Positions 18,146 through 54,800 of a stretch of DNA of 64,000 nt are shown piece after piece. The stretch is taken from the NCBI GenBank assembly GCA_029834535.1, contig JAQMWT010000341.1, positions 186,001-250,000 of the forward strand, read 5' to 3'. The stretch's first letter is position 1. The number at the start of each line of letters is the position of its first letter. The notes under the pieces were generated by a model. The model saw only the letters and a list, made by a program, of their open reading frames with translations, did not search any database and was not told the DNA's origin. The stretch is from Chrysophaeum taylorii (Eukaryota; Sar; Pelagophyceae; Pelagomonadales; Pelagomonadaceae). Position numbers and translations under genes: made by a program.

Positions 18146-18272
18146 CTAGGCGCATGCACGACGACGGGACCGTTCTCCTTAGGAGAACAGGTCGACGTGA
18201 CTTTCAATTACTCCAAAGTCAAGGTGAAGACAACTTGGCGATGGTGAGTGATAATGTAGCTGATGATGATTA

Positions 18273-19986: not shown

Positions 19987-20349
19987 CTTTTATCAAACGA
20001 CGACGACGACGATCGAGGGTTTCGATTGCCGACGACGACAAGGACAAAGAGGGTTTTATTCTATTTGTATTTTATGAGGGCGACTCTGCAGGGGTGCGGG
20101 CGTATATTCTGGGTTTTTAAAGGTCGACTGTTTTTAAAAAAGGGGGGGGGTATGTAGGTTGTGTGGAAACGTGAGAGATGCCGAAAAGGCGGAGGTGGTG
20201 CCCGGTCACGATGGTTTTAAAGCGCGGGCGTTTGTGGGTCGTGCGACGACGACGAGGGTTCCGGGTATTGCCCCGCCGTCGTCCTGCCTCCTCTCCTTTC
20301 CGCCCCGGGATCGTGGCTCGCGTTACGCTATCTCATCATCACCTTATTA
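19987..20349. other. Promoter region and repeat element between a membrane-protein gene and DPM1
   Basis: 363 bases with no gene. Two AAACCCT boxes on the minus strand (20016-20022 and 20050-20056) belong to the upstream gene. A GGTCGACTG/poly-G element lies at 20113-20150, and the GTGAGAGATGCCG segment shared with 1876-1904 at 20169-20196. The rest is GC-rich and unassigned. Confidence 0.5.
20113..20150 (+). repeat. GGTCGACTG / poly-G element, copy 2
   Basis: Reads GTTTTTAAAGGTCGACTG, then TTTTTAAAAAA and a nine-G run. Twenty bases on is the segment ACGTGAGAGATGCCGAAAAG that also follows copy 1 at 1876, which suggests that both belong to one dispersed element with variable internal length. 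Confidence 0.6.
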
Positions 20350-21250: not shown

Positions 21251-21304
21251 CAACACTTGAACCTTACCCTCGACAGCAGTCGACCTTGAAATACCCTCCA
21301 AGGG

Positions 21305-24226: not shown

Positions 24227-24802
24227 ATGCGTGCGTGCTGCGCGCTCTTGGTCTCGATTGCAATCCGCGTCGTCGACGGGAGCTCGCTTGACGAATGCGA
24301 AAGTTTGAGCCTGGACTACGATGTCGACGGTATGGCGGGGTACGTGTGTTAGCGCCCGCGTGGGTCGCTGACGGGCAATCTTCAGGATTGAAAGTGCGTG
24401 CAACGCGTGCACGGCGCGACGAGGGTGCGGGTTCTGCCTCTCGAGTGGCGCGTGTCTACGGGGGGACGACGCGGGCCCGGCGGGCGTTTTCTGTCCTACC
24501 TGGCACGCCACCACGACATCGTGTCCGATCCAGCCGACGTGCGACGATCACCCAACGTGCGGTGCATGCGTCGTCGACGATTCCTGCGCCTGGTGCGTGT
24601 CTCACCCTATCGGCGTCACCTTGACGATCCAGGTGCGCGAGCGAGCAACGATGCATGGATCTGGCGCAAGTGTACGTTTTCGATGAGAACAACGACCATT
24701 TTCTTTTGTCCAAAAATACCACCGACCCTCGTCTTCGCAGATTCTCGCGGGACTGCCATTCGGCGGTGTTCGATGCGCCATGTCCAAGTTCGTGGGTTCC
24801 CG
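24227..24802 (+). other. Signal peptide and two PSI-like Cys-rich modules of the giant protein
   Basis: Splicing 24227-24339, 24386-24632 and 24741-24802 gives a signal peptide, then ACNACTARRGCGFCLSSGAC with downstream Cys (VFCPTW, TSCPIQ), then PTCDDHPTCGACVVDDSCAW followed by CVSHPI and FGGVRCAMS. The CxxC...CGFC / CxWC pattern is that of plexin-semaphorin-integrin (PSI) domains, disulphide-bonded modules at the N-terminus of secreted or surface proteins. The introns are 46 bp (24340-24385), 108 bp (24633-24740) and 40 bp (24803-24842); all preserve the frame into the repeat region. Confidence 0.7.
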
Positions 24803-30800: not shown

Positions 30801-33800
30801 CCTCGACATCGTCCGGAGGTATTGTCGTCGCATCAGCCAATGCCGGCAAGGAGGGCATCAGCGGCTCTCTTGAGCTCTCCACCGGAACTGCGAGTCGACT
30901 CAACTCCGGTATGATTTCCGTCACGACTGGCTGCGCTATCGACAACCCCGAAGCGGGGGGCGCGATAAACATCTTTGTTGGGAGCGCCAGGGCAGCTCAT
31001 CTTGGGGGCGAGCTGCGTATCGCTGCTGGAACAAGCAAGCCAGGCACCGGAGGGGAAGTTTCACTTACCAGCGGGTATGGCCTCTGGAGCGGCGAAATCT
31101 CGGTGTTGACACCGCATGCCACCGAGGGACTTGCACACAGCGGCGAGATCTTGCTTCATGCTGGCTGCTCCACGACCGAGTCTTCTGGTGATATCATTGC
31201 GTCGACAGGAATCACAGATCGTGCGGCGGGCGGAAATGCTGGCGGCGTTTACTTGAGTGTTGGTGATGCTGCTGCCTTCTCTACCAGTGGGTCCGTGCTG
31301 ATGTGCGCTGGAGATTCCGACGTCACATTTTCAGCCGGGGGCGTTGCATTCTTGGCCGGCATTTCGCAACTTGGGGCGGGAGGAAACGTTTCAGTATCGG
31401 CAGGGTATACGGTTGGAGACATAAACATTGCTGCCAACGTGAGCATATCCGCTGGTCTCGCATCTGAAGGGGCTGGTGGCTCATGCTCGTGTCTTTCTGG
31501 CAGCAGCGAAGAAGGTGACAGCGGAATCATTCGAGCATCGACTGCGATTGCACAAAATGGACGCAGCGGTGCCATTAGCGTCGTCACTGGCGATGCTACC
31601 GCTGCTGGCACCGCATCGATTGCGCTACACACTGGGACTGCCACCCTTTCTGCTGGTTCAATGATTCTGGCTGCTGGCACGGCATCTAACGGTGGATCTG
31701 GTGGATCAATATCTCTAAATGCTGGTAAGACAGCGGACCCAACGGGGAGCATTGGTGGGGCCATTTCTCTACTTACCGGTGCATCCACTGAGGTGCGAGG
31801 AATGTTTGTTCGTTGTGATTATCGATCCTTGTCTATTGTTGACGTGCCAATTTTGACTCGCGTGACTGTTTGATCCGTATGCGTCCTCGCGTTCGCCGTC
31901 GCGCCTACTTCGTTCTTTTACACATCGTGAGTGCCTGGTGTCTCTGCTTCCCTCGAAGTTTCATAATCACTAATTTCTCGGTGTGCTCCCGCGCAGAGTC
32001 TTCAAGCGGCAACGTCGAAGTCTCATCTTCGTCATCGGATACAGTGGACTCCGGAGTGATTACATTACTTACGGGAACTAGTACGACAGCGAGCGGCGCT
32101 GTCTGTGCAACGACCGGAACCTCGCAAGCTGTAAATGGTGGCGGCTGCTGGGTTACTACTGGCTGTGCTCAAACTGGTGGTGACATAAGAATCAAAGCAG
32201 GACTTTCTCAAGCTGGCGGTGACGTGAAATTCGAGGCTGGCTGTGTTGGTGGAAGCTCTGCGAGTGGCGGAAGTGTTGTTGTGACTGCTGCGGCGTTAAC
32301 CTCGAGCGGTTCTGGACAAGGCGGAGACGTCAATCTGACTGGGGGGTTATCGCAAAGCGAGGTCGGTGGAGGAGTGAGTCTACTCAGTGGAGGAAGTGAT
32401 AGCATCTTCACTGGCAACATCGGCGTCTACACGAACTCGAGTACCAAAAGCGGGTCAGTCTTGGCACGCACTGGGCAGGCGACGATGTTTGATACGGGTG
32501 CAATTGCCATCACATCTGGAAGTGCCAGCAACGATGGCTGCGGAAGCAACATTACACTTCTTATTGGCAAAACTTCGTCGGGCTTTGGGGGAGACGTAAA
32601 TGTTATATCTGGCTTATCAGAAGAAGCAGAAACGAGCGGCCAAATCCTAATTCAGTCGGCTTCAAGTACAGATTCCAGCAGTGGCAACATCATAGTCGAG
32701 ACCTGGAATTCCGGCGATTCAAGTGGATCTGGAAGCATTCTTCTCCAGACAGGGACAGCTCTCGCTGATTCTGGTTCTATATATCTCGCAACGGGTAGCG
32801 CAACCGAAACTGCGGGCATAGTTGTGCTGTCTGCTGGGATCTCCCAAGACGGTGGCTCGGATTCGACAATAGTCGCGGGAAGTTCGACGCACGAAACGGG
32901 TGGAACTGTCTACCTTCTTTCGGGTTACTCCGAGGCAACCACGAGCGGCAGCTTCCACGTACTGACCGTAAACTCGGGTTTGAACGGAATGAGTGGGTCG
33001 CTAAGAGTTGTGACAGGAACATCCAGAGCAGATGTCAGCGGCATGGTACAACTATCCGTAGGCATGGCAACCGCCGCTCCCACCGGCGTCATTACCATCG
33101 AAAGTGGTCGTGGCACACTCTCGGGAGACATTTTGGTCCAGGGTGGTAACAGCGAGTCTGACGATCACGCCCATGGTAACGTCACTCTCCTTGCTGGTCG
33201 GGCGACACAAGACTCGTCCGTCGGTGGCGATGTCAAACTCAGAGCAGGCAAGGGTTTGAGTACTGGTGGCGCTGTCTCTGTGTGCAGTGGTCATTCTTCT
33301 GGTCAGCAAAGTGGAACTGTGAATATCTCATCGCCCTTCTGTGCTGAGGATGGCCCCATCTTCATACTCACAGGCACAGCTTCCAGCGGAAATTCTGGCT
33401 CTGTCCTTGTCGGCACAGGGGCAGGATTTTGCCATTCCGCTCCAATTAATTTGACCGTAGGAGCCGCGAGCTCTGGTCGGGGAAGTTATTTGTTTCTACT
33501 AGCGGCTGAATCGGAGACAGGCGGAAATGTCACAGTGAGCGGCGGTGTGAGCGAGGAAACCGACAGCGGCAATATTTGCTTGGCTAGTGCGCGCCAAGAT
33601 GACGCTACCGAAGTCTCAAGTGGCGCCATAAGGCTTACAACAGGCACCGCAAGCGAGGCGAGTTCTGGCAGCATCGTTTTGCGAGCGGCGACGGCGACGC
33701 ATTCTTGCGGTGGCGACATCTACATGTCACCGGGGAGTACCGAATGTGGCTACGCAGGGTCGCATCTGCGTTGCTTGAGTGGAAGCGCTTCTGATAGCGA

Positions 33801-36800
33801 CGGAGGTATGATATCCATCAATGGTTCTACTGGAGTCGAAGGCCGGATGTCTCCTACAATCAACGTAAGCTCCTCAACATCAACAAGCACAGACTCGGGT
33901 CAAGTCACGTGCATCACAGGTGCCACACAGGCAGACACGGCAATCTCTGGATGTATTGCGTTGATATCAGGAAATTCGACTGGTAGCTCTAGTGGCGGAA
34001 TAAATGTGTCCACAGCTGGGGAGGGCGAAGCAGCCACTATCATCATCGCCTCTGGTTCGTCTTCTGTCGCTGCGGGTGGCCATGTAAGTATTCAGGCTGG
34101 GAATGCAGCAGCATCCGTGGGTGGCAACGTTTCACTCGAGGCAGGTGCCGGTAATTCTGGTGGTGGTCAATTGGTTTTAACTGCTGGCAGAGCCACAGCA
34201 GGTGAAGGTGGCACAGTTTGTCTTACTAGTGGTCGCCGTGCAAGCGTTATCATATTGACGGGGGATGATGTGGTGGAGGCTGGTTCTGTAAGTGGTTCTT
34301 TATCACTGATCACTGGCGATGCCGAGACCGGGACGACCGGTCAGGTGCTCATGGCAACTGGTGAGGCCGTTGCCAACTCATCTGGGAGCATCAAAATCAA
34401 AGTTGGAGTATCAACCAGTGGGACAAATGCGGGAAACATTTCGTTGAATGCGGGTAATCTGTGGGGTGATAGTTCGATGGACGCAGGTGCAATTCATCTG
34501 ACGTCGGGGGCATGCACGGCATCACCAATTCGGGGTTTTAGTGGTTGCATTTCACTGGCCACCGACGGCGGGTCTGAAGTCACACTCGCCAATAGCGGCA
34601 TGATCAACCTTACGACTGGATGTGCCCCTCTTGGCAGCAGTGGCAAAATCACGCTGGCCATCGGTATGAGTCAAAGTGGCGCCAGTGGAAATATAAGCAT
34701 CACGGCGGGAGCCTTGAATGTGTCATCGGAAGGCGACTTGCCTGAAGACAACGCGCGCAGTGGTGGCAATATAACTCTCACCGCCGGAACGTCAACTTTG
34801 AGCATTGGGGGTTCGTTGAATCTCTCAAGCGGATACGGTGTTGTCTTCACAGATGGTTCAGAAGACTCGCCTTGTGGCAGTGGAGTAGTGTTGGTATACA
34901 GCAAGAACACAAGCACTGACAGTGACAGCGGGTCTATCAAGTTGCAGACAGGGACTTCAGGTATGATGAGTTCTGGGATGATTCGCCTAGTGACTGGTGA
35001 CGTCCCTGAAAACGGCATGGCAGGGTCACTTAATCTTTCTCTTGGCACTACTGCACAAACCATTGGCCCCGCTTTGAACTTTACCGCTGGAAATTCTTCA
35101 GATGGATATGCGGGTACAATGTGTGCGACTTCTGGATCGTCTTCTGGTGCATGCAGTGGACAGGTCGCTCTGCAAAGTGCGACTGCGGGCTCGGTCGGAT
35201 GCAGTGGCTCTTGCGCGCTCCGCACCGGTGTGTCCGGTCTCGGCGGCAGCGGCGCGCTTAGAATTAAAACAGGCCTGGCTGTCGATGGTCGAGCAGGTTT
35301 TGTAAATTTGTCAACAACAACAACCGGGTCCCTTGGACAGGGAGGCACCATCAGATTAGTGGCTGGACACGGCTCCACAATGCTGGGTACTGGCGGTGAT
35401 CTGACAATGCTCGCTGGGTCTGGCTTCGGCTCTTGCGGTTCTGGAGGCGGCAATGTTACACTCACTAGTGGTCCGGGATCGGCCTCTTGTGGTTCCATAC
35501 TGGTAACGACGGGCCCAACACCCGCAGACTCTGCTGGCACTATAATGGTGCGGACGCAGCCTTCAATGGAGACATCAGATGTTACAGTGGCCTCTGGATC
35601 TGCCCTAGCCGGTGATTCCGTATCTATTGATATGCAAACCGGCAATGGACAGAGTGGTGCAGCAGGATCTATCGAGCTCGTCGTTGGCACGAGTATTGCC
35701 GGCATTGGTGGTAGTCTCAACTTAGAAGCTGGACTGGGCGCAGTTTCGGGTACCGTGCAGTGTTCAACTGGCGCCGCACCTACAACAAGCGGGAGAATTG
35801 CGCTTGAAACACCAAACGCTGGAATAGGCGCCGGGAGTGGCGCACTCATGTTGGAAACAGGAACAGCTTTGTCGGCGGCAACTGGACACATCCACTTGAG
35901 AGCCGGTGCAGCATGTGGCAACGGGGGGTCCCTTTGTCTGATCGGAGGAAGCTCAGATAGTGGGCAAGGGGCATCGATCGCCGTGTGTAGCGCTCCTGGT
36001 ATGAGCCAAGCGGCGTGCTCTTTTCAGTCAGGACAGGCTTCAAGTGGTGCCGCTAGTGGAAGCATCAGCATTTCTTCGGCCGCTGGATCAGTGAGCGCCG
36101 GAGTGAACGTAACGTCGGGAACATCAAGGCAGAGCTCAAGTGGGACAGTCGTGGTCTCGACGGGATCTACACCAGATGCTCTAGGGGGTATCAACATAAC
36201 AGGTAATAGCATTTATGCCACTGGCGGAGGGAAAGGGATTGCATCTCTGGCAAGCTCGACAATAAACATATCGACGCGCACAAGTCAGGGTGATGCTGGT
36301 TCTTTGACTGTGCAGGCCTCTGGAGAAGCGATCATAGACGTTGAGAACGGCAATGTGACCATCGCTACTGGCCTCGACGGGAATTTGTCACTCGTCTCAA
36401 TTGCTGATTCTTCAGACCAGAGCATCATCGGCTTTGGTTGCGACGGTGTAAACAATCCAACATACGACGTTCGATTGCGCTATGACAGCACTGCGGGGGA
36501 TAACGCATCTATGTTCATCATCAATACAGAATTTTTAGCAACCGAAATAAGATTCTCATCTGACAGTCGCATCAAGCGCGAATTCCAGAATGTGGACACC
36601 GACGAGGTCTACGAGCGACTACTTCGAGTCAACTTGCAGCAATACAAGTACACAGACGCGTGGAAGCGAGTTCGACCGCGCGACCACGAGTCAACTCGAG
36701 GAGTGATTGCACAGGATCTAAGCCGAATTTTCCCAGAACACGTCAATATCGTGCCTCGGTATTCACTCCCCGACAAGAACTTCCAGCTGGAAAACTTTTA

Positions 36801-39800
36801 CCAAGTTGACAAGATGGGGCTTACAATGGACCTCATCGCGGGTTTACAAGCTCAATCAAAGCGATACAGTCTCAAACCCGGCCGGAACACTTCTTCAAGT
36901 ACACTAAGAATGCAGTCGGATTCCTTGGACTTGAGTGGCACTATCATCTTCAACACTGGAAGCTCAAGTCGCTTGAAAGCTAAGAGTGGTTCGATCATAA
37001 TTGAGTCTGGGACCGCGCAAAGTCGTGCTTCGGGCACAGTGTGCGTAGCTCCAGGTGGTGCGATGTTCAACGCCGGTGACCTTCACATTGAGCCTGCCCA
37101 ATTCAACTCACGCCTACCAGAATGCGGTGGCTTCGTCAATATTGCCGGTGGCAATGTTCAGTTGGAGACCGGGATTAGCCTATCTGGCGGCGGCTCTGGC
37201 TTTCGTGCGATAGCAAACAGCGACATTCATTTGAGAGTGAAAGCCAGCGAGGAACTTGGTGGGACCGTGGAACTTGGTGGGAGCGTCAAGTTTGAGGCCG
37301 GCGTGAGTTTAGCGTGCTCAGGTGGTGAAGACAAAGTGCGCGCTGGTGACGGCGACGAGGAAGGTGGGGAGATCGAAGTTGATGCCGGACACGGTGACGT
37401 GGGAGGCTCGTTGCTCATCCGTACTGGTGCGGGCGCAAATGAAACAGGTGGTAGCTACTGCATCCAAAGTGGTATGCAAGAAGTTCCCATCAACACATTG
37501 CAAAGTGAGGAAGGCAGCGGCCCAGTGCATGTGAGCACATCACACACACGCCTGGGATCAGGCGCATTGGCGTTCCGGACAGGTCGATCCAATATTGGGT
37601 CGTCTGGCGATGTGCAGATGCATGTTGGGCAGTCGACTTCCGAGTTGGAGACGAGTGACGGTGGGGTGCTACGAGTGTCCACTGGCGACTCAGCTTTTCG
37701 TGGTGGTCAGATCGCACTGAGGGCAGGAGAATGTCGCCAGTCCGTGCCAAATGGCGGTAATTTGACGATCATTGGTGGTTCAGGCTGTTGCGCTGGCAGT
37801 GTTCTTATTCGGTCTGGAGATGCGGGAAGTATTCAAGGAGACCGCAGTAAAGGACGCGGTGGTAGCATCGGCCTGATTGCTAGATCAGACGAGAAGACTA
37901 ACATCGGGGGGCGCATCCGTGCCGAGGCAGGGTCGAGCTTGGAATCAGGTGGGGGACAGCTGGATATCCGAGCAGATTTGAGTGGAAAAACTGGCAGCGG
38001 CGGAGGTTGTATCAACATGACTAGTGGTTATAGTGCAAAGCATGTCTCGGGTCTTATTGCTCTGCATTCCGGAAATGCACGGGGGCAATGGAGTGGACAA
38101 GTGCAGCTTAGCTCGAGGGGAAGCGCAGCAGCGTTGCCTACTTTCAGCGGTGAGGTGGGAGTGAGGGGTGGGCATGGCTGCCTAGCAGGTGCGATCTCGC
38201 TCTACAGCGGTGTCTCTTCTGGGACAAACGGAAGCAACGTGACGCTTTGTGCTGGCATGGCGCAAGGATTTGCAGCAATTGGAGGCCACGCAAGATTCTT
38301 TGGTGGATCCGGCTTTCTCGGTGGGAGGCTGGATATTGCAGCAGGCTGTGGTGTAGAGAGTACTGGGGGGACGCTGAAGCTCCAAAGTGGAAGTAGTCAC
38401 AGGGACGCGAGTGGTGCTGTGGGTATGACGAGCGGTCGTGGGCACGAGAGCGGCTCTAATTGCCTGCACAGTGGGACCAACGAGAATGGATGCTCAGGCA
38501 AAGTGGTCTTCAAATCTGGAGATTCCAGGTCTAGCGGGGGTGGCGTGTGCTTTGAAACTGGTAGCGGTGGAACTGGCTCAGCGGGGAACATCAGCCTCGT
38601 CGTTTCTGCCTTCAGTGAAGCAGCAAGTTTGCAAGGAGGTTGTGCCATGGTTCGCGGTGGCAACGGAGGTGAAGGTGGAGACGTAGTTTTTCAAGGTGGC
38701 TCTGGCACTCGGGAAGAGGCAGGGAATTTGAGCCTTTCGGCTGGATCTTCGGATCAATCGGGTGGTGGGGCTCTTCTGGTGACTGCAGGAACACCATCTC
38801 AGTTCGGAGGCTGTCTCTATGTGACAGCAAGCAATGGTTATGACTCCCTTGGCGGAGACATTTCAATGATTGCAGCTGCTAACAACATGACTGGGGGAAC
38901 AGCTCGAATCACTACAGCTCGTGTGGATTCGGACGCGGTTACTGAATCTGAGAGCATCCGAGTCGGAGCAGGTTCTTCAGGTGTCTCAGATTCTACCGAC
39001 GAATTAAGTACTGTCACCTTGCAAACAGGTGACTCGGCCGACGCATCTGCGGGTAGTGTGCACCTCAGTACCGGAGACGGTTCCAATGCAGGAGGAAGCT
39101 GTCTTGTAAGTGCTGGAAGCTCGATGAATGGTGCCTATGCTGGAGGGAGACTCATCGTAGTGGCCGGAGCTGCCTTGGAGGGCGGAGAGCTCATCACACA
39201 CGCAGGAAGTGGTGAAGAACGAGGTGGCGACATGATTCTCGCCAGTGGACCTGGAGAGTTGCACACAGGTTTTGTCCATGTCAAAACAGCGTGCATCACA
39301 CCGCCGCCTTCCGAAAGCGGATCGGTTGAACTTGGCTCTGGCGCGAGTGCCGGACAGCGGTCTTCGGGCCATGTGAAAATCCAACAAGGTTCACTTTCAG
39401 TCCAGACTGCAAACGACAATCCTGTGCGGTTGTCTGGTGGTGCAAGCGACAAGGGGGCAGGATCGCGGCTACTGGTGGCATCGGGATCGAGCGAGATGGA
39501 GTCTTCCGGGAGCATCATCCGGCTTGCAAGCGGCGGAGGAAGTTATGGGGGTGCGGTGCATGTTCAAGCTGGAGTAGCCCACGTCGAAAATGGTGGTACA
39601 CTGAGCGTACAGGGAGGCGACGCATCCTGCAGATCACCAGCTGCGGGTGGAACCGTCAACATTATGGCTGCCTCATCTCCCGACGGCGAAGGTGGTGGTC
39701 TGCTTCTGCGCGCTGGTATTGGCCGATTGCAGGGTGGCATTGTCGCATTATCAAGCGGCAGCAACAACCTAGAGGGTAGCAGTGGTCGAGCGATAATTTG

Positions 39801-42800
39801 TTCCGGAGCTGACAACATGAGCGAGTACAGTTTAAACACTGTTGGTGGCGGTAGTGGCGATATCAAACTTGGCACGGCAGAGGCAAACTTTGAGTCCGTT
39901 GTGACAGGTGCAGTTGACGTGCAAACCGGAGACTCGGCTGATGGACAATCGGGCTCGATTTGTGTAAAAACCGGAGTTGCTCGGGATAGCTTCGGCGGGT
40001 CACTGATACTTGAAGCAGGATCGAGTGAGGAACAAGGCGGCGTATTGCATGTCAGCGGCGGCAGTGGTAGCACGTACGGAGGAGAAGTTGGTATTCTCGC
40101 CGGACGAAGCTGCGACGGTGACGGAGGCAATCTCGCTCTTTTGAGCAGCTACAGTGGTGACTCGTCTAGTGGATCAGTGGTGGTAGCTAGTAGTGATGGC
40201 GCACAGAGCGGTGGCATCTTCGTGGAGTCGGGTACAAGTTTGACTGGTGTTTCCGGGTCACTGGTACTATCGACGGGTACATCCCAATCCGCAGCTTCGG
40301 GTACAGTCCGCATCTCGACAGGGAGCGCTCGCGATACAGGTGGCGACATCGCACTGCGCGCTGGTGACGCTCACGCTGCCTCTGGCGGGGACTGCGCCAT
40401 ATCAGCGGGGGAAGGCGACTATGGGGGGGTTCTCGCTGTGCGGGCGGGCGCAGGCAACTCGAACGGTGGGACCTTGGAGATTGGTGGCGGAGATGCGGGC
40501 GCGGGCACAGGTGGGGCGGTGTCATTTCGATCTGCATCCGGCCATAGTAGCGGCGGTGATTGTCGGCTCGTCGCCGGGTCGGGGGCATCAGACAGTGGTG
40601 GTTTGCTCAGTATTGTGGCTGGGGACGGCGAGGCAGCGGACGGTGGTCGAGTCCACTTAGAGACAGTGGCAGCGGGAGATTCCGGGTCAGTCGAGCTGTG
40701 CACTGGAAGCGCAGATGATGTCTCTGGTGCCCTGGAACTAAAAACGGCAAATAGTGCTTTGGCCGCCGGTGACTTGAGTCTGGTCGCTGGCTCGGGTGAA
40801 GTAGGCGGCTCCTTAAGTGTGAGTGTTGGCGCGAGTCTCTGCTCGACAGCACGCACTGGAGGCGGTCTGCTCATGGCTGCTGGAAATGCCCTCGACGATG
40901 GCACAGGCGGCCAAGTTATGATCTGTGCTGTGGATGGAAACGAACAGGGTGGTATCCTCAACATTGCGAGTGGCTGCAGCATGGAGGACCAATCAGGCAC
41001 GATTGACGTCCGAAGTAAGAGCGCCCCAGCACATTCAGCCATGAGTGGTGCAGTCCGACTCGCAAGCGGTGGCGATAGCACTACGGCGATATCGGGCAAG
41101 GTGCAAATCACTGCAGGCGCTTCTAGATCACAAGACTGGTCTGGAGGATGCTCGTTGGTTGCTGGTGCTAGCGCCGACGACTCTGGAGGGGATGTTCAAC
41201 TTTCCGGGGGCGACGCCGACTCATCTGGTGGAGACACAGTCATAAGTGGTGGCTCTGGCAGCGGAGAGGCAAGTACGGGCGGAGGTGTCGTCCTTTGTGC
41301 CGCAACTGGCGACAAAAGCAGTGGTGGCACGGTGAGCATGACGGCTGGCGAGGCAACGGAATTGGGAGGTTCATTTAGAGTTGATGCCGGAGGTAGCACC
41401 GTTGGTTCCGGTGGAAATCTGGAGGCGAGCGCTGGTGCTGGCGACGATAATGACTCCGGAGGATCGGTAAAAATCGCCAGCGGCTTCGGTCTTGAATCTA
41501 GTGGCGAGACAGCCCTCTGCACACCTTGGTCTTCCGCTGGAACGAGCGGTCTTGTGCGGATTAGCTCAGGATCGGCCACGATAGCCTCGAGCGGTGATGT
41601 TGCGCTCAAAACAGGGGACGGCCAGCGAGCTGGAGGAGTCAGCCTTCAGAGTGGTGCGTCGACTTTGAAGGGAGGCGGCGACGTGTCGTTGCTCGGGGTG
41701 ATGTACTCGCACCTTCCGGCGTTGTCGGCGGGAACGTCGCATTCGAGTCTGGGTCCGGGGTGCGTGGTGGAGACTTGGAGATAGTCGGCGGTGAGAGCAG
41801 CGATGGCATAGGCGGGTCGATCTCGCTAAGTTCTGGTGGCAGCGACGTGTCAAGCAGTGGCACAGTTCACTTAGCAAGCCGCGACGGACACAGAAGTGGT
41901 GACATCTGTGTTATGTCGGGTACTTCAAGCAGATCAACATCAGGGGCTGTGCTCGTAGAGTCCGGTAGCGCACTACGTCACAGCGGAAACATCAGCATCT
42001 CTGCTGGTTGCAGCGACGGTGCTGTGGGAGGCGAAGCGAGACTCGTCGTAAGCGACGATTTCAATGATTTCGCACTAGGCGGCAATGTGTGTATGAAAGC
42101 AGGTGCTGGGCATCAAGGTGGCCAACTTGAGCTTTGCAGTGGCGTTGGACTCTCTGGGAGTGGTGGTGAAGCATGCATCAACGCCGGCATCTCGTCGGAT
42201 GCAAGAGGAGGCTCACTTGTTCTGGCTGCGCGCGGTAGCTCGAGTAACGGCGGAAATGTGCGAATTGCAGGTGGTTGCGGTGACGGCGCATGTGGTGGTG
42301 TTCTTGTCTTGGGCGCGGGCGAGAGCGACGATGCGTGTGGAGGACAGCTCCGTATAACTGCAGAGGACGGCGAGTCGAGCGTAATGTCGAAGTCTGGGGA
42401 GATCAAGTTTGTGAGTCAATCTTCATTTGTCTCAGGTGGGGATGGTGATTCTGGCACTGTGATCTTTCGAACTGGCGACTCGGCTGATGCATCTGCGGGA
42501 AACATGAACCTTGGTGCCGGAGGCGGTTTGAATAGAGGAGGCAGCTGTCTGATTTGCGCTGGGAAATCAATGGATGATGGCGGCGTTGGAGGGCAACTCA
42601 TCGTAGCTGCCGGAGCTGGCATGGAGGGTGGAGAAATCAGCATGCGCGCAGGAAATAGTGATGAACGAGGTGGCGACGTGATTCTCGCCGGTGGACTCGG
42701 GGGGTCTCACCCGGGTTTCGTCCGAGTCAAAACAGCCTCCACCACGGCGCCGCTTTCCGAAAGTGGATCAGTTGAACTTGATTCTGGCACTAGCGCCGGG

Positions 42801-45800
42801 CAAGGCTTGTCTGGCAATGTGACAATCCAACAAGGCTCCTCTTCAGGCCGGACAGCAAGCCACAACGGTGTGCAGGTGTCTGCAGGTGCAAGCGGCAAAG
42901 GCTCCGGACCGCGGCTATCACTGGCATCGGGATCGAGCGAGGAGGCTTCAGGAGGTCTCATCGGGCTTACCAGCGGCGGGGGGAGTCGTGGGGGCAATGT
43001 TCAGGTTCGAGCCGGGGTGTCCAATGGTGAGGATGGAGGCAGGCTAATCGTCTCGGGGGGCGAAGCATCCAGTAGATCAGCAGCTGCGGGTGGGACGGTC
43101 GATATCATGGCTGCCTCATCTACTTGCGGCGAGGGTGGTGCATTGTTTCTGCGCGCTGGAGTGGGCGGGTTGCATGGTGGCGGCGTCGCCCTTTCGAGCG
43201 GCCGCGGTGATGAGAACCAAGATGGCAGCAGCGGTCCAGCCACGATCTGCTCCGGAGCTGCACACGGGGGGAAAGACGGTGTAAACGCTGCTGATGGCCG
43301 TGGTGGCAACCTCGAACTCGGCACTGGAAGGGCTAACCTCGACTCGGGCTTGACGGGCGAAGTTAATGTACACACGGGAGAAGCGGCAGATGGACATTCT
43401 GGCTCGATTCGATTTGTTTCCGGAGACGCTTGGGACAGTTGTAGTGGGTCGCTAATGCTTGAAGCAGGATCGAGCAGACAACAAGGAGGCGCGCTGCGTA
43501 TGTATGGCGGCAGTGGCGGCACGTTTGGAGGAGAGGTCGGTATTGTCGCTGGAGATGGCTGCGACGGCAAAGGAGGCGATCTTGCTTTTTCTAGCGGCGC
43601 CGGTGGTGAATCGCCAAGTGGATCAGTGGTACTAGCTAGCAATGGTGGGTCAGAGAGTGGCGATCTCATCGTGACGTCGGCCACGAGCTTGACTGGTGCT
43701 TCGGGATCTCTCGTACTGTCGACTGGTTTGGCCCGATCTACAGCTTCGGGTCAAGTCGGTATCTCGGCAGGGAGCGCTCGCGACACAGGTGGTGACGTCG
43801 AGCTGCGCGCTGGTGACGCTTGCGCCGCCACTGGTGGGGACTGCGCAATATCCGGAGGAGGAGGCGACGACGGAGGTTCTCTCGCTGTGCGGGCGGGCGC
43901 GGGCAAGTCAAACGGTGGGAGCTTGGCGATTGATGGAGGAGATGCTAGTGCAGGATCAGGTGGTGCGTTGTCATTTCAGTCTGCATCGGGCCATAGAAGC
44001 GGCGGTGACTTTCGGCTCGTCGCCGGGTTTGGAGCATCAGAGTGTGGTGGCTGGTTGACTATTTCAGGGGGAGACAGCATGACAGCAGATGGCGGCTGCG
44101 TCCGCTTGGAGACAGCCGCCGCGGGAGATTCCGGATCGATTGAGCTGGGGACTGGAAGCGCCAAAGATTTCTCTGGGGCAATGGAGCTGAATACTGGAAC
44201 TAGCAGTGAGACGGTTGGTGACTTGAGTCTTGTCGCCGGCTCTGGTGAAGTCGGCGGTTCCATAAGTGTGATCGTTGGCTCGAGTCTCTGCCAAGCTGGA
44301 AGCGCCGGAGGTGGCCTGCGCGTTGCTGCTGGAAATGCCCAGGACGAAGGTGCGGGCGGCCAAGTTGCGATCTGTGCTGACAGTGGAGATGAACATGGTG
44401 GTGGCCTCAACGTTGCGAGTGGCTGTAGCATAGAGGACTTGTCGGGCATGATCGAGGTCCGAAGCAAGGGGGCCGCGGCACATTCAGCCACAAGTGGTGC
44501 ACTCCGACTCGCAAGTGGTGGCGGCGGCGATGGCGTTGCGGTGACTTCCGGCGCTGTGCAGATTGCTGCAGGAGTTTCCGGATTACGAGACTCGTCTGGA
44601 GGATGCTCTTTGCTGGCGGGTGTTGGCGCGGATGGCTCCGGAGGGGACTTTCAAGTTTCCGGAGGGGAAGCCGAATCGTCTGGTGGAGACACAGTTGTTA
44701 GTGCCGGTTCTGGCAGCGGCGAGGAAAGTATTGGTGGAGATGTTCTCCTTCGTGCCGCAACTGGGAGTGAGCGCATTGGTGGCACGGTGATCATGACTGC
44801 TGGCGAGGCGGCGTGCGAATTGGGAGGTGCCGTTAGCGTTGCCGCTGGTGGAAGCTCAGTTGGTCACGGTGGGAATCTGGAGGCGAGGGCTGGTGCTGGC
44901 GATGACGATGATTTTCACGGTGGATCCGTGGAAATAGCGAGCGGCCTAGGTCTCGACTTCAGCGGCGAGACGGCCCTCTGTACAGCATGCTCTTCTGCAA
45001 GATCTAGCGGGCATGTGCGTATGAGCTCCGGATCAGCCTCATCAACTTCGAGCGGTGATGTTGCGCTCAAAACAGGGGATGGTGAGCGAGGTGGAGGAGT
45101 AAGCTTTCAGAGTGGATCGTCGTCTTTAAAGAGAGGTGGCGACGTGTCATTGAGTGCGGGCGACGTACTCCCTTCGTCCAGTGGTGTCGGCGGAAGTGTT
45201 GCCTTCAAATCTGGGTATGGTGTTTGTGGAGGGAATCTGGTGATAGAGGGTGGTGAAGGCAGTTCCATCATAAGTGGCACGGTGGATTTTTTTGCCGGTG
45301 GCAGTGACATGTCTGACAGTGGTACAGTGCGAATCGCAAGTCACGATGGACTCATCACTGGCAATGTTTGTATTTCCAGTGGGCAAGCTAAAGAGGACTG
45401 CTCCGGGCAGATAAACCTTATGTCGGGGGGTAGTGACTATGGCGTTGGTTGTGTTACTGCAGTTGCTGGCAACACGACTAGCGGAAACGGTGGATCAATT
45501 CGAGCCTTGTTTCAAATGTGTGAAGTCAGCGCCGACAGTGGAGGCTGCACAAGGTTGCAAGGCGCCAAAAGCGCAATTGGTGGCAGGGTAGCAGTAGAAG
45601 GAGGTCATGGCAAAGAAGCTCCAGGCTCAATGTGGATGAGAGCAGGTCACACCACAGCAGATGCCGGCGGCGCGCTGAAAGTCGGTGGTGGTAAAGGTTA
45701 TGTTCGTGGTGGGCTTAGTTGCGTGAAGGCTGGGCGTGGTATTTTTGAAACAGGTGGGTCCGTTGTAGTCAAAAGCCAAGTAGCCGCAGATGCACGGAGT

Positions 45801-48800
45801 GGGCACATTTCATTGGAGTCTAGCCCAGACGACGTAACTGGGTGCGCAAGTGCGATAACAGGCAATTCTAGCCTTGGCGACAGCGGCGGAATGCTGATTT
45901 ACACTGGCACATCTCGAGACATACAGAGAAGCAGCCTGGTTGTTGTTGCGGCGGGCGACGCTCAGAACGGGTCGGGTGGGTCACTAATGATTGAAGCGGG
46001 ATCGAGTGAGGAGCAAGGCGGCGTATTGCATGTCAGCGGCGGCAGTGGCAGCACATACGGAGGAGAAGTTGGTATTCTCGCCGGACGAAGCTGCGACGGT
46101 GAGGAAGGCAATCTCGCTCTTTGGAGCGGCTACAGTGGTGACTCGTCAAGTGGATCAGTGCTGATAGCTAGTAGTGATGGCGCACAGAGCGGCGGCATCT
46201 TCGTGGAGTCGGGTACAAGTTTGACTGGTGTTTCCGGGTCACTGGTACTATCGACGGGTACATCCCAATCCGCAGCTTCGGGTACAGTCCGCATCTCGAC
46301 AGGGAGCGCTCGCGATACAGGTGGCGACATCGCACTGCGCGCTGGTGACGCTCACGCTGCCTCTGGCGGGGACTGCGCCATATCAGCGGGGGAAGGCGAC
46401 TATGGGGGGGTTCTCGCTGTGCGGGCGGGCGCAGGCAACTCGAACGGTGGGACCTTGGAGATTGGTGGCGGAGATGCGGGCGAGGGCACAGGTGGGGCGG
46501 TGTCATTTCGATCTGCATCCGGCCATAGTAGCGGCGGTGATTGTCGGCTCGTCGCCGGGTCGGGGGCATCAGACAGTGGTGGTTTGCTCAGTATTGTGGC
46601 TGGGGACGGCGAGGCAGCGGACGGTGGTCGAGTCCACTTAGAGACAGTGGCAGCGGGAGATTCCGGGTCAGTCGAGCTGTGCACTGGAAGCGCAGATGAT
46701 GTCTCTGGTGCCCTGGAACTAAAAACGGCAAATAGTGCTTTGGCCGCCGGTGACTTGAGTCTGGTCGCTGGCTCGGGTGAAGTAGGCGGCTCCTTAAGTG
46801 TGAGTGTTGGCGCGAGTCTCTGCTCGACAGCACGCACTGGAGGCGGTCTGCTCATGGCTGCTGGAAATGCCCTCGACGATGGCACAGGCGGCCAAGTTAT
46901 GATCTGTGCTGTGGATGGAAACGAACAGGGTGGTATCCTCAACATTGCGAGTGGCTGCAGCATGGAGGACCAATCAGGCACGATTGACGTCCGAAGTAAG
47001 AGCGCCCCAGCACATTCAGCCATGAGTGGTGCAGTCCGACTCGCAAGCGGTGGCGATAGCACTACGGCGATATCGGGCAAGGTGCAAATCACTGCAGGCG
47101 CTTCTAGATCACAAGACTGGTCTGGAGGATGCTCGTTGGTTGCTGGTGCTAGCGCCGACGACTCTGGAGGGGATGTTCAACTTTCCGGGGGCGACGCCGA
47201 CTCATCTGGTGGAGACACAGTCATAAGTGGTGGCTCTGGCAGCGGAGAGGCAAGTACGGGCGGAGGTGTCGTCCTTTGTGCCGCAACTGGCGACAAAAGC
47301 AGTGGTGGCACGGTGAGCATGACGGCTGGCGAGGCAACGGAATTGGGAGGTTCATTTAGAGTTGATGCCGGAGGTAGCACCGTTGGTTCCGGTGGAAATC
47401 TGGAGGCGAGCGCTGGTGCTGGCGACGATAATGACTCCGGAGGATCGGTAAAAATCGCCAGCGGCTTCGGTCTTGAATCTAGTGGCGAGACAGCCCTCTG
47501 CACACCTTGGTCTTCCGCTGGAACGAGCGGTCTTGTGCGGATTAGCTCAGGATCGGCCACGATAGCCTCGAGCGGTGATGTTGCGCTCAAAACAGGGGAC
47601 GGCCAGCGAGCTGGAGGAGTCAGCCTTCAGAGTGGTGCGTCGACTTTGAAGGGAGGCGGCGACGTGTCGTTGCTCGGGGGTGATGTACTCGCACCTTCCG
47701 GCGTTGTCGGCGGGAACGTCGCATTCGAGTCTGGGTCCGGGGTGCGTGGTGGAGACTTGGAGATAGTCGGCGGTGAGAGCAGCGATGGCATAGGCGGGTC
47801 GATCTCGCTAAGTTCTGGTGGCAGCGACGTGTCAAGCAGTGGCACAGTTCACTTAGCAAGCCGCGACGGACACAGAAGTGGTGACATCTGTGTTATGTCG
47901 GGTACTTCAAGCAGATCAACATCAGGGGCTGTGCTCGTAGAGTCCGGTAGCGCACTACGTCACAGCGGAAACATCAGCATCTCTGCTGGTTGCAGCGACG
48001 GTGCTGTGGGAGGCGAAGCGAGACTCGTCGTAAGCGACGATTTCAATGATTTCGCACTAGGCGGCAATGTGTGTATGAAAGCAGGTGCTGGGCATCAAGG
48101 TGGCCAACTTGAGCTTTGCAGTGGCGTTGGACTCTCTGGGAGTGGTGGTGAAGCATGCATCAACGCCGGCATCTCGTCGGATGCAAGAGGAGGCTCACTT
48201 GTTCTGGCTGCGCGCGGTAGCTCGAGTAACGGCGGAAATGCGCGAATTGCAGGTGGTTGCGGTGACGGCGCATGTGGTGGTGTTCTTGTCTTGGGCGCGG
48301 GCGAGAGCGACGATGCGTGTGGAGGACAGCTCCGTATAACTGCAGAGGACGGCGAGTCGAGCGTAATGTCGAAGTCTGGGGAGATCAAGTTTGTGAGTCA
48401 ATCTTCATTTGTCTCAGGTGGGGATGGTGATTCTGGCACTGTGATCTTTCGAACTGGCGACTCGGCTGATGCATCTGCGGGAAACATGAACCTTGGTGCC
48501 GGAGGCGGTTTGAATAGAGGAGGCAGCTGTCTGATTTGCGCTGGGAAATCAATGGATGATGGCGGCGTTGGAGGGCAACTCATCGTAGCTGCCGGAGCTG
48601 GCATGGAGGGTGGAGAAATCAGCATGCGCGCAGGAAATAGTGATGAACGAGGTGGCGACGTGATTCTCGCCGGTGGACTCGGGGGTCTCACCCGGGTTTC
48701 GTCCGAGTCAAAACAGCCTCCACCACGGCGCCGCTTTCCGAAAGTGGATCAGTTGAACTTGATTCTGGCACTAGCGCCGGGCAAGGCTTGTCTGGCAATG

Positions 48801-51800
48801 TGACAATCCAACAAGGCTCCTCTTCAGGCCGGACAGCAAGCCACAACGGTGTGCAGGTGTCTGCAGGTGCAAGCGGCAAAGGCTCCGGACCGCGGCTATC
48901 ACTGGCATCGGGATCGAGCGAGGAGGCTTCAGGAGGTCTCATCGGGCTTACCAGCGGCGGGGGGAGTCGTGGGGGCAATGTTCAGGTTCGAGCCGGGGTG
49001 TCCAATGGTGAGGATGGAGGCAGGCTAATCGTCTCGGGGGCGAAGCATCCAGTAGATCAGCAGCTGCGGGTGGGACGGTCGATATCATGGCTGCCTCATC
49101 TACTTGCGGCGAGGGTGGTGCATTGTTTCTGCGCGCTGGAGTGGGCGGGTTGCATGGTGGCGGCGTCGCCCTTTCGAGCGGCCGCGGTGATGAGAACCAA
49201 GATGGCAGCAGCGGCCCAGCCACTATCTGCTCCGGAGCTGCACACGGGGGGAAAGACGGTGTAAACGCTGCTGATGGCCGTGGTGGCAACCTCGAACTCG
49301 GCACTGGAAGGGCTAACCTCGACTCGGGCTTGACGGGCGAAGTTAATGTACACACGGGAGAAGCGGCAGATGGACATTCTGGCTCGATTCGATTTGTTTC
49401 CGGAGACGCTTGGGACAGTTGTAGTGGGTCGCTAATGCTTGAAGCAGGATCGAGCAGACAACAAGGAGGCGCGCTGCGTATGTATGGCGGCAGTGGCGGC
49501 ACGTTTGGAGGAGAGGTCGGTATTGTCGCTGGAGATGGCTGCGACGGCAAAGGAGGCGATCTTGCTTTTTCTAGCGGCGCCGGTGGTGAATCGCCAAGTG
49601 GATCAGTGGTACTAGCTAGCAATGGTGGGTCAGAGAGTGGCGATCTCATCGTGACGTCGGCCACGAGCTTGACTGGTGCTTCGGGATCTCTCGTACTGTC
49701 GACTGGTTTGGCCCGATCTACAGCTTCGGGTCAAGTCGGTATCTCGGCAGGGAGCGCTCGCGACACAGGTGGTGACGTCGAGCTGCGCGCTGGTGACGCT
49801 TGCGCCGCCACTGGTGGGGACTGCGCAATATCCGGAGGAGGAGGCGACGACGGAGGTTCTCTCGCTGTGCGGGCGGGCGCGGGCAAGTCAAACGGTGGGA
49901 GCTTGGCGATTGATGGAGGAGATGCTAGTGCAGGATCAGGTGGTGCGCTGTCATTTCAGTCTGCATCGGGCCATAGAAGCGGCGGTGACTTTCGGCTCGT
50001 CGCCGGGTTTGGCGCATCAGAGTGTGGTGGCTGGTTGACTATTTCAGGGGGAGACAGCATGACAGCAGATGGCGGCTGCGTCCGCTTGGAGACAGCCGCC
50101 GCGGGAGATTCCGGATCGATTGAGCTGGGGACTGGAAGCGCCAAAGATTTCTCTGGGGCAATGGAGCTGAATACTGGAACTAGCAGTGAGACGGTTGGTG
50201 ACTTGAGTCTTGTCGCCGGCTCTGGTGAAGTCGGCGGTTCCATAAGTGTGATCGTTGGCTCGAGTCTCTGCCAAGCTGGAAGCGCCGGAGGTGGCCTGCG
50301 CGTTGCTGCTGGAAATGCCCAAAACGAAGGTGCGGGCGGCCAAGTTGCGATCTGTGCTGACAGTGGAGATGAACATGGTGGTGGCCTCAACGTTGCGAGT
50401 GGCTGTAGCATAGAGGACTTGTCGGGCATGATCGAGGTCCGAAGCAAGGGGGCCGCGGCACATTCAGCCACAAGTGGTGCACTCCGACTCGCAAGTGGTG
50501 GCGGCGGCGATGGCGTTGCGGTGACTTCCGGCGCTGTGCAGATTGCTACAGGAGTTTCCGGATTACGAGACTCGTCTGGAGGATGCTCTTTGCTGGCGGG
50601 TGTTGGCGCGGATGGCTCCGGAGGGGACGTTCAAGTTTCCGGAGGGGAAGCCGAATCGTCTGGTGGAGACACAGTTGTTAGTGCCGGTTCTGGCAGCGGC
50701 GAGGAAAGTATTGGTGGAGATGTTCTCCTTCGTGCCGCAACTGGGAGTGAGCGCATTGGTGGCACGGTGATCATGACTGCTGGCGAGGCGGCGTGCGAAT
50801 TGGGAGGTGCCGTTAGCGTTGCCGCTGGTGGAAGCTCAGTTGGTCACGGTGGGAATCTGGAGGCGAGGGCTGGTGCTGGCGATGACGATGATTTTCACGG
50901 TGGATCCGTGGAAATAGCGAGCGGCCTAGGTCTCGACTTCAGCGGCGAGACGGCCCTCTGTACAGCATGCTCTTCTGCAAGATCTAGCGGGCATGTGCGT
51001 ATGAGCTCCGGATCAGCCTCGTCAACTTCGAGCGGTGATGTTGCGCTCAAAACAGGGGATGGTGAGCGAGGTGGAGGAGTAAGCTTTCAGAGTGGATCGT
51101 CGTCTTTAAAGAGAGGTGGCGACGTGTCATTGAGTGCGGGCGACGTACTCCCTTCGTCCAGTGGTGTCGGCGGAAGTGTTGCCTTCAAATCTGGGTATGG
51201 TGTTCGTGGAGGGGGCTTAAAGTTAGCGGGCGGTGAAAGCATTGCCAGCATTGGCGGAACAGTCTCGCTCAAGTCTGGTGGCAGCGACACGTCGCACAGT
51301 GGCATGGTGCAAGTAACAAGCCGCGATGGACCGAGCAGTGGTGATATGTGCCTTACGACAGGGGCATCAAGCAATTTTTCTTCGGGGACTGTGAACATAA
51401 TGACAGGGAACGGACAGACTGGCAGGACGAAGGTATGCTTGACAACAGGTGACTGTTACCGAGGTCGAGCAGAGTCGATTCTAACACTCGCTGGTCCATC
51501 GGCTTCCTGCCGTGGTGGCGGTCATTGCTTTATTTCGGGAAGCGGAACTAACGGTGGTTGTATAGACCTAGATGCTGGCTTGAGTTCTGATGACCATGGC
51601 GGTTCAATCATGTTTGATGCCGGCGCTTCGGCATCGAGTGGAGGGTCTATTCAGTTGAACACGGGTCGAGCGCATTGCGACGGGGCAGCTGCAGGATCAT
51701 TATGTGTTCGTTCTGGTTCCGGTGCTGTTCATGGAGGCACAGTACAACTAATGTCGGGCGCAGGATCTGCCGAGTTCGGCAACATCGAATTGAATACTGG

Positions 51801-54800
51801 GCCCTCAGTGTTCAATGTCACTTCGGACGAGTGCGTGTTGCGATCCAAGTCTGTTGCATATGCTGCCGCTTCCATGATTTCATTGACGAATCCATCGACA
51901 TCCCCATTGGACGATACATCAGCTGGCATTCATCTTGATGTCAGTAACAGGGCGAAGGGTACTGATTTTTCCGTTCAGCATTTCGAGGACAAACCTTGCG
52001 TGCTCTCTTCTGTACCCTTGAGAATCATGGGCACGAAATATTCCTCGGATCATCGAATCAAACGAGACATTCAATACGATGTGGATGTAGGAAAGCTCTA
52101 TCAGGCATTTGTCAATATCAGCCTCGCTAACTATCACTACACAAATGACTGGGCCGAGGTTCGAGGGGTTGATCCGGAAACGAAGGCACGTGGCGTCATT
52201 GCTCAAGAAGTCGCTGCGATCTCTCCCTTCAAGTCAAGGATCGACGTCTCAGACTACACTGACAAAAACTTTGCGCTGGAAAATATGTACAAAGTGGATA
52301 AACAAGGCATGGTGTTGGATCTGATCGGCGCACTTCAAGCAAGGCAAGAACGTTTGACCACGAATGTCGATCAACCCGAGAAAACCGGCAACATCACAAT
52401 GGCGACTGACAGCGGACTGGCTGGTGGCAAGCTGCACTCTAGTGGCAACCTGTGCATTGGTACTGGGCTTTCCAGGGATCGAGATTCCGGATTCATCGAG
52501 ATGCAGACTGGTCATGCCAAAGCGCGAGACAGCGGATCGCTCGCCCTTTCTGCTGGTGTATCGACATGCATTGGTGGGGACATGAGAATCAAAGGTGGCC
52601 AAGCATGTGAGGGTATGGGCAGCAATGTACACTTTATGGCAGGGCATTCATCCACAGGAAGTGAAGCTGGGGCTTCGAGCATTCATGTTTCTAGTGGCCA
52701 ATCCAGCTCAGAAGGCGGCTCAATCCAACTAATTGGGGGTTCATCACCCACATGCACATGGTCTGCTGGTGGCCATGTTGGGATAGAAACGTCTTCCGGC
52801 TCAGGTAGCAGTGGATCTATATTGATTGGTCACCGAAGCAGCGGCCCTGCATCCAGAGGATTTCTTACTCGGCTCGATGCCGGGGGCAAGGCGCGCGTGT
52901 GTAGTGGTAGCGCGAAAGACAAGAGCCAAGCTTCGTCTGGAAACATCAGCATAGTAACAGCCGCTCATAAGAGCTTGGGAAGTGTCTGCGTTATAGCAGG
53001 CAAACACGATGGAAGAGGCTCTGTTTTGAGTTTGTCGACGGGAAACAGTACAGCGCCATTCTCAGATACTTATATCAAAATCCTCGCTGGTTCAAGCTCT
53101 GCTGCAGGTTGTATCGGCTTGACGTCTGGGAATGCTTGCGATGGGCGAAGTCGTGGCGGGCTTTCGTCGTTGAGCGCAGGTAAGGCTGAGTCCGGTGGAT
53201 TGGTAGATGTGCGCGCCGGACATGGCCAATGTGGAGTCGGGGGGAAGCTCGGGCTCCTGTCTGCATGTGGGACACAAGCCAGTGGAAGCATATCCTTGCG
53301 GACAGAATCTTCGATGGCAAACACTGGAGGAGTGCGAATCCGAACTGGCAGGTCTGCTCAAGGCGCAACAGGTTTTGTCTATATTGGTTCTGGAGTCGCA
53401 CCAAGTGGCTGCGCGGGGAATGTGTCGTTGCACTCGGGTTTTACATCCGGGTCGGGAGCCGGCGTAAACCTGACAGCAGGCACGTCACGCGCGGACTGTG
53501 GTGGTTTTGCGACGCTCAGCGCGGGTGCCGGACATATAGGTGGAGCTATAAGTTTTGCTGGCGGAGCAGGAAGCGCGAGCGCAGGGAACTTGTCTCTCGC
53601 CGCTGGTTTCGGGGAACAGGGTGGTGGCATGTTCGCTTTGAAAAGCGGGAATTCTGTGCAGAACAATGGTGGAGCGGTAAGTGCGGAAGCTGGTTGTGGT
53701 GCTTATGGGCCAGGTGGACATTTATGCCTGCTCAGTGGAAGTCAGAAGCTGGCCTCGTCAGTTGAAACGTCCGTTGGCACATCTTTGACTCTGGATGCAG
53801 GGCGTGGACAACATGCTGCTGGGAGTGCCATCATCGCATCGGCTCAGTCTACAAGTGGGTCTGGCAATGTGGCACTTATCACTGGCAACGTGAGCGGCGG
53901 AATCTCTGGTTCAATCAATCTGACATCTGGTTATGCGAGCACTCCTGGTTCCTATTGTCTGCGTGCTGGTTCAGGCGCTCAAGGAGGTTACCTTGCATTA
54001 GTGAGCGGCAGCATGAATGTAGATCAACGAGAGGCGGACAGTGCCTTTCATGGGGGGAATGTGAACTTGAAGGCACAACATGCTTCTTGTGGGGGCTGTG
54101 GGGGCTTGTTGTGTCTGGCGTCAGGGGAAGGATCGATCGAAGCAGGAGGCAACTTCCTCTTACGTGCAAGTTCAGGATGTGGAGACGGGGGCTTGGTCAC
54201 AATGACGAGCGGAAATGCGAGCGCAGTGTCGAGCGGCAGTTTGGGCCTGGCCACAGGAGCATCAAGCGAAGGGCTCTCAGGTTCGCTAGACCTTACAACT
54301 GCCCACAGCTACAGCGGCAGGGGTGGGCATATAGACTTTCTGGTTGGCCGCGTCAAACACGAGAGTGCCTTGGCTGGTAATGTAACAATTCGTTCGGCCA
54401 CAGGGCTCCAAGGGACTGGTGGGAACGTAGAGATCACTTCAGGCTCGATGCCACCGCAAAGTGGGATCTCTCTTTCTACAGTTGACAGCGACACTTCTGC
54501 TGGAGAAATGTCAATTGCAGTGGGTTCTGGTGGCCGATATGTTGTTGGCTGCATGACTGCCGCTGCCGGCAACGCTTCGTTCAGCGGTGGCATGGTTGCC
54601 GTGAATGCTGGATCTGCTGCAGAAGGGTCGGTTTCTCGAGCAGGATCTGTCGCGATTAATGCCGGCACGGCGCATGACGGCAGTGGTGGTCACTTGTTTT
54701 GTTTATCGGGACAGAGTGATGCAGAATCTGGGGCGCTCTTTTTGAATTCGAAGAGTGCTGAGACGAACAGTGGTCACATCAGTATCCAAACTGGTACTGC

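What the first reader, a model, noticed from the sequence alone, without database searches (positions are those of the whole stretch)
36400..52360. Two S74 self-cleaving chaperone domains inside one polypeptide: a fibre polyprotein
In known S74 proteins (phage tail spikes and fibres, MYRF) the domain follows the fibre it folds, and autocleavage through a Ser-Lys dyad releases it. Here two divergent copies, both with SSDxRIK intact, sit in the middle of the chain with thousands of repeat residues on either side. Cleavage at the two Ser would cut the protein into three or more fibre segments of about 3,900, 5,100 and over 3,900 residues, each folded by its own chaperone. I know of no described eukaryotic polyprotein of this design.
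Basis: partly seen in the sequence, partly recalled or inferred. Interest (0 to 1): 0.88.

Follow-up and report, generated by a model that had tools for sequence, protein, structure and literature searches.

The report
Giant fibre protein with self-cutting chaperones
A eukaryote-type genome encodes enormous repetitive fibre-like proteins, one predicted at 35,000 amino acids, each carrying two copies of a phage-type domain that in other proteins helps a fibre to assemble and then cuts its own chain, so that one protein may be made as a string of several fibres.

Summary
Both S74 domains are real (Pfam 45.2 and 27.4 bits). In the window they lie in different open frames: three one-base differences separate them, all inside a 99.4% identical tandem duplication. 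A paralogue in the same 70.8-Mb genome settles the design: one uninterrupted 34,841-codon frame carries both domains and predicts a 35,000-residue, 3.16-MDa protein: signal-like/PSI-like N-terminus, repeats, S74, repeats, S74, about 26,000 residues of repeats, unmatched C-terminal domain.

Eleven internal S74 domains (two genes here, four database proteins, one from Tribonema minus) group together. The Asp, Arg, Lys, two Tyr and Gly that matter in MYRF are kept in 11 of 11; the nucleophile Ser in 9 of 11. MYRF is the nearest solved structure. Viral S74 domains sampled sit at C-termini.

Mid-chain S74 is known from MYRF; a cut before Ser would leave each domain on the downstream piece; three pieces have only two S74 domains; two relatives have lost one Ser. 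Cleavage, trimerisation and fibre shape are inferred. New is several internal self-cleaving domains in one giant chain.

The parts
24227..24340 (+). probable first exon, signal-peptide-like start (MRACCALLVSIAIRVVDG...)
   Evidence: read by eye in the translations; coordinates; no signal-peptide program was run
24390..24602 (+). Cys-rich, PSI-like exon
   Evidence: resembles by eye the N-terminus of the C314 protein, where Pfam PSI scores 22.7 bits, just under its cut-off of 23.1; coordinates
24826..31870 (+). repeat-coding open frames 24826-27984, 27900-28949 and 29081-31870, with probable short introns near 27.97, 28.95-29.08 and 31.8-32.0 kb
   Evidence: intron signals read by eye
31843..41781 (+). 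3,313-codon open frame: repeats, S74 domain 1, repeats
36340..36867 (+). S74/ICA domain 1 (W1) with its upstream stalk; SSDSRIK 36556-36576, predicted nucleophile Ser codon 36559-36561, Lys codon 36574-36576
   Evidence: Pfam 45.2 bits; catalytic set; AlphaFold model matches MYRF, endosialidase, GA-1 and T5 chaperones
39994..45233 (+). first copy of a 5.24-kb tandem duplication of repeat-coding DNA (holds one of the three frame breaks)
   Evidence: 99.4% identical to 45975-51213, three 1-base indels
45975..51213 (+). second copy of the 5.24-kb tandem duplication (holds two of the three frame breaks)
41598..48800 (+). 2,401-codon open frame of repeats between the two domains
49012..64000 (+). 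start of an 11,082-codon open frame that runs to about 82.26 kb (C341:268257): repeats, S74 domain 2, repeats
51883..52347 (+). S74/ICA domain 2 (W2) with its upstream stalk; SSDHRIK 52042-52062, predicted nucleophile Ser codon 52045-52047, Lys codon 52060-52062
   Evidence: Pfam 27.4 bits; catalytic set; not modelled in 3D

Best explanation
The window holds most of one of two paralogous host genes for a secreted, giant, repetitive fibre protein that carries two mid-chain S74/ICA domains. Most likely mechanism: three chains meet; each ICA domain trimerises and fixes the register of the repeats just upstream; once it is correctly assembled its Ser, activated by the Lys five residues further on, breaks the bond in front of it. 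The precursor becomes three fibre pieces (in the C314 paralogue residues 1-3827, 3828-8443 and 8444-35000). Each ICA domain stays as the N-terminal cap of the piece that follows it; the last piece is closed by a separate C-terminal domain. SHOWN: both domains, the conserved catalytic set, the single chain in the paralogue, protein-level constraint on the repeats. INFERRED: trimerisation, cleavage, order of folding, secretion, extracellular fibre role, and that the three frame breaks in the window copy are assembly errors or recent damage.
Against: No protein-level data. Two of 11 domains (P1c and P2c, probably one ancestral loss) have Ala for Ser. The C-terminal helix is short (18 residues in the W1 model) against a 36-residue coiled coil that drives MYRF trimers. 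The model has pLDDT under 50 across the cleavage segment (residues 63-81), so Ser-Lys geometry was not judged. The repeats could not be modelled (pLDDT 49.6). The window copy itself is broken in frame three times between the domains and again beyond the window.
Confidence: 0.55

Rival explanations
1. Staple without release: the ICA domains act as internal trimerisation and register points of one very long fibre; cutting is lost, partial, or only nicks chains that stay intertwined, so the product is one fibre and not several.
For: P0001 and P0002 keep a domain whose nucleophile is Ala; repeats resume within about 10-20 residues after the domain.
Against: Ser kept in 9 of 11 and the rest of the catalytic set in 11 of 11 across diverged domains, which a mere staple would not need.
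Confidence: 0.27
2. MYRF-like release: the cut serves to free an N-terminal part (PSI plus first fibre) from an anchored remainder, as a release or signalling step, and is not a way to make several fibres.
For: Nearest solved relative is MYRF, whose cut frees an N-terminal trimer (passages of PMC3742443).
Against: Two cutting sites instead of one; no membrane span stands out in the C314 protein (highest 19-residue Kyte-Doolittle mean 1.83); no family match to a DNA-binding domain in the parts scanned.
Confidence: 0.1
3. Viral or selfish origin: the genes are fibre genes of integrated polinton-like or giant viruses.
For: S74 is common in polinton-like virus fibres of up to 3.9 thousand residues (PMC12220804, passages); phage fibre families match the domain.
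Against: That paper reports single, C-terminal copies and no S74 in the elements from ochrophytes. C314 flanks look like host genes (aminotransferase-like and kinesin-like, read by eye); left of the window gene are LRR, RING, PP2C and GT2 domains; probable introns.
Confidence: 0.05
4. Pseudogene or assembly artefact in the window: the broken frame means no functional product from this copy.
For: Three one-base breaks between the domains and more beyond 82 kb.
Against: The breaks between the domains fall in 99.4% identical copies, where assembly errors are easy; the duplicate pairs show dN/dS of 0.19-0.35; the C314 paralogue is intact.
Confidence: 0.15

Closest known systems
MYRF / MrfA ICA domain (membrane-bound transcription factors)
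   Same: Mid-chain S74 domain; same Ser, Asp, Arg, Lys, Tyr, Tyr, Gly set; best PDB match by sequence and fold.
   Different: One domain per chain, between a DNA-binding and a membrane domain (passages); here two or three in a giant repetitive chain without a recognised DNA-binding domain in the parts scanned.
Phage tail spike and fibre S74 chaperones (endosialidase 3gw6, GA-1 3gud, T5 L-shaped fibre 4uw8/8hqz)
   Same: S74 fold and SDxxxK motif next to fibre-like repeats.
   Different: C-terminal: in 26 frames of 24 IMG/VR loci the match ends at most 66 residues before the frame end (L038 by its second piece), and 15-70 residues before the profile end in 10 of 10 PHROG families hit by W1.
C-terminal S74 proteins of the same genome (C587, C443, C323)
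   Same: Thousands of residues of repeats before an S74 domain with [ST]SDVRLK.
   Different: Another repeat type; the domain ends the protein; outside the clade of the internal domains.
Polinton-like virus fibre proteins with S74
   Same: Large modular fibre proteins with S74 (PMC12220804, passages).
   Different: Single, C-terminal domain; up to 3.9 thousand residues; viral.

Membership tests
Peptidase S74 / ICA domain | Profile match over the curated cut-off | tested here: met
   45.2 and 27.4 bits, cut-off 22
Peptidase S74 / ICA domain | Ser-Lys dyad five residues apart | tested here: met
   Both window domains and both C314 domains; 9 of 11 internal domains in all
Peptidase S74 / ICA domain | S74 chaperone fold | tested here: met
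   Domain 1 only: core of the model matches 7dc3, 3gw6, 3gud, 4uw8; domain 2 not modelled
Peptidase S74 / ICA domain | Trimerisation and self-cleavage | not testable with these tools
   Only monomer models; cleavage segment at low confidence
Phage-type fibre with C-terminal, released S74 | Domain at the C-terminus | tested here: not met
   Repeats follow each of the four domains for thousands of residues
MYRF / MrfA transcription factor | Ndt80-like DNA-binding domain ahead of the ICA domain and a membrane span behind it | tested here: inconclusive
   Pfam found none in the frames scanned (1,440 residues before domain 1 and others; C314 N-terminus), and no membrane span stands out, but not the whole protein was scanned with Pfam
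Polyprotein | Several functional units in one translated chain | tested here: met
   As architecture only: one C314 frame with three repeat segments set apart by two S74 domains
Polyprotein | Cut into separate mature products | not testable with these tools
   No protein-level data

The most novel reading that the evidence does not exclude
A eukaryotic lineage that includes the xanthophyte Tribonema minus has turned the phage-type self-cutting fibre chaperone into serial internal cutting points: a precursor of up to 35,000 residues assembles as a trimer into several giant fibres in fixed ratio, each freed only after its chaperone has sensed correct assembly. The domains form one old group that may be the nearest known kin of the ICA domain of animal MYRF.
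Probability: 0.42. Interest if true: 0.88.

Novelty: new variant of a known kind. Interest (0 to 1): 0.77.

Why it matters
If the cuts occur, this is a fibre polyprotein processed by its own folding sensors, in a chain about as long as titin (titin's length is recalled, not from a call). It offers a system to test how S74 works mid-chain; a natural series of domains with and without the nucleophile in one protein (P0001); and non-viral relatives for asking where the MYRF ICA domain came from. The C314 gene is in itself remarkable for a 104-kb frame without a stop.

Tried and rejected
Third domain to the right: none on contig C341 in the Pfam search, none in 104 kb with the internal-domain profile. 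Recent duplication of the two window domains: rejected at p-AU 0.0165, but this is one of three clade tests (W2+G2 0.363, G1+G2 0.092), so it is borderline after correction. MYRF as the nearest relative: next to the internal group at 94/77 (34 rows) and 87/85 (16 rows), unstarred and with long branches; the phage family phrog_1980 matches single internal domains at 40-76 bits and MYRF matches W1 at 28.4 bits or the 10-domain profile at 53.9 bits, which are not like-for-like; left open. The 16-row tree supports the internal group less (90/95) than the 34-row tree (99/97). Fold of the repeats: AlphaFold on 58 in-register 182-residue segments, mean pLDDT 49.6; no fold search was run with it. C-terminal domain of C314: no match in Pfam, PHROGs or NCBIfam, and no convincing PDB sequence match (best E 0.39). 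Species: the search for the 18S rRNA of the genome did not complete. Literature: ten searches listed no paper whose title or abstract start describes multi-S74 eukaryotic proteins; several listings were only part of the hits (25 of 296, 12 of 158, 6 of 86), and the library holds open-licence papers only.
Full report
WHAT IS THERE. The window is C341:186001-250000 of an unnamed 70.8-Mb assembly in 697 contigs. Two Pfam S74 matches are confirmed at 45.2 and 27.4 bits, with SSDSRIK at 36556-36576 and SSDHRIK at 52042-52062. Both lie inside very long frames of Gly/Ser-rich repeats.

GENE MODEL IN THE WINDOW. The gene seems to begin near 24.23 kb with a signal-like exon and a Cys-rich exon, has probable short introns near 27.97, 28.95-29.08 and 31.8-32.0 kb (by eye), and repeat-coding frames go on past the window to the end of the DNA that I fetched, C341:290000. 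Between the domains three one-base differences break the frame; they are the three indels between two 99.4% identical copies of a 5.24-kb block, and at each the other copy keeps the frame. Further breaks lie near 82.2, 83.3 and 85.5 kb, beside another near-identical duplication (70064-76820 and 79619-86368, 97.3%); I did not analyse these one by one. By genomic length about 4,000 residues precede the first Ser (introns taken off roughly), 5,160 lie between the two Ser, and about 17,300 follow as far as fetched.

THE PARALOGUE. The Pfam search of the genome gave 8 S74 hits from 9 candidates: 2 on C341, 2 on C314, 1 each on C587, C443, C323 and C109. On C314 both are in one frame of 34,841 codons. 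With one predicted 59-base GT-AG intron near the end, the protein has 35,000 residues and 3.16 MDa. From its Met to the donor the coding frame has 0 stops in 34,825 codons; the other five frames have 232, 627, 958, 1,134 and 1,413. Its predicted pairs are Ser3828/Lys3833 and Ser8444/Lys8449. Gly spacing peaks at 15 residues in the first segment, 14 in the second and 91 in the third, where 15 is also strong. Its N-terminus scores 22.7 bits for PSI, just under the cut-off of 23.1. The last 175 residues have no Pfam, PHROG or NCBIfam match. Flanking frames look like an aminotransferase and a kinesin, read by eye only.

SELECTION. In the three duplicate pairs of the window gene that I examined, dN/dS was 0.24 (29 changes), 0.19 (3 changes) and 0.35 (about 650 changes); adjacent 91-residue repeats of C314 have pooled pS 0.77 and pN 0.30 over 171 pairs. 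The repeats are constrained as protein.

RELATIVES. The three protein searches gave 1, 2 and 1 proteins with E up to 0.001, among 596, 487 and 286 candidates: P0001 with three internal S74 domains, P0002 with two, P0003 with one, and P0004, a 237-residue partial protein of Tribonema minus in which repeats follow the domain. Few relatives were found, and length limits of the search mean that full-length giants would not be seen. The eleven internal domains form one group at 99/97 in a 34-row tree and 90/95 in a 16-row tree. W1 pairs with P0003 (100/98 and 100/97). A tree with W1 and W2 as sisters is rejected at p-AU 0.0165, one of three tests, which favours an old pair over a recent copy.

ACTIVE SITE. 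In mouse MYRF numbering Ser587 is kept in 9 of 11 domains (Ala in P1c and P2c), and Asp588, Arg590, Lys592, Tyr615, Tyr617 and Gly635 in 11 of 11; Gln639 is kept in 7 of 11 and Lys671 in 8 of 11. Mouse MYRF is cut at P586-S587, and its Y615/Y617 double mutant is not cut there (PMC8326128, passages); Gly635 corresponds by numbering to human G626, whose change to Ala reduces cutting (PMC3742443, passages). The same spacing here predicts a cut between the two Ser of SSD.

POSITION CONTROL. In 26 frames of the 24 IMG/VR loci (several near-identical) the S74 match ends at most 66 residues before the frame end, counting L038 by its second piece (16; its first piece ends 117 before); upstream matches in the same frames that lack the SDxxxK motif were left out of this count. 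These loci were found with patterns made from the internal domains. In 10 of 10 PHROG families hit by W1 the match ends 15-70 residues before the profile end. The C587, C443 and C323 proteins of this genome are of that C-terminal kind. The internal ones are not.

INTERPRETATION. One giant chain with two working-looking folding sensors best fits serial self-processing into three fibre pieces. Two facts keep the 'staple' reading alive: Ser loss in one domain of P0001 and P0002, and a short C-terminal helix. Mid-chain S74 has the MYRF precedent (PMC3742443, passages), so the new element is several internal copies in a giant fibre-like chain. A 105-residue domain folding thousands of upstream residues is a stretch; fixing register at the end of each segment is more likely. 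The role in the cell (wall, mucilage, hair or ejected thread) is a guess.

Noticed in passing
L017-L027 (G000:C314:592390-697449): A predicted 35,000-residue, 3.16-MDa protein in a gene with one 104-kb exon and one 59-base intron, with flanks that look like host genes.
   Followed up: yes
L032-L033 (C587), L034 (C443), L003 (C323): Three further giant proteins of the same genome with another repeat (ITSTAAVTGTSTLYAAG type) and a canonical C-terminal S74 domain (open frames of 4,072, 2,768 and 3,508 codons).
   Followed up: partly
L005 (C109:199042-202212): A small frame (143 codons) with a C-terminal S74 domain (TSDRRWK), close to a reverse-transcriptase-like frame (YADD, read by eye).
   Followed up: no
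L027 (C314 about 696924-697448): A 175-residue C-terminal domain without a Pfam, PHROG or NCBIfam match or a convincing PDB sequence match; it might close the fibre end.
   Followed up: partly
P0001 and P0002: The last S74 domain has AAD in place of SSD; Gln639 and Lys671 (MYRF numbering) are changed in the same two domains, as if relaxed after loss of cutting.
   Followed up: partly
right of the window, in window numbering 70064-76820 / 79619-86368 and 86354-89287 / 90995-93928: Further near-identical tandem duplications (97.3% and 99.0%) in the repeat-coding DNA, with frame breaks near 82.2, 83.3 and 85.5 kb.
   Followed up: partly
window 2632-21301: Frames with PP2C, LRR, RING and glycosyltransferase 2 domains left of the giant gene (4 of 9 frames scanned had a match).
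   Followed up: no
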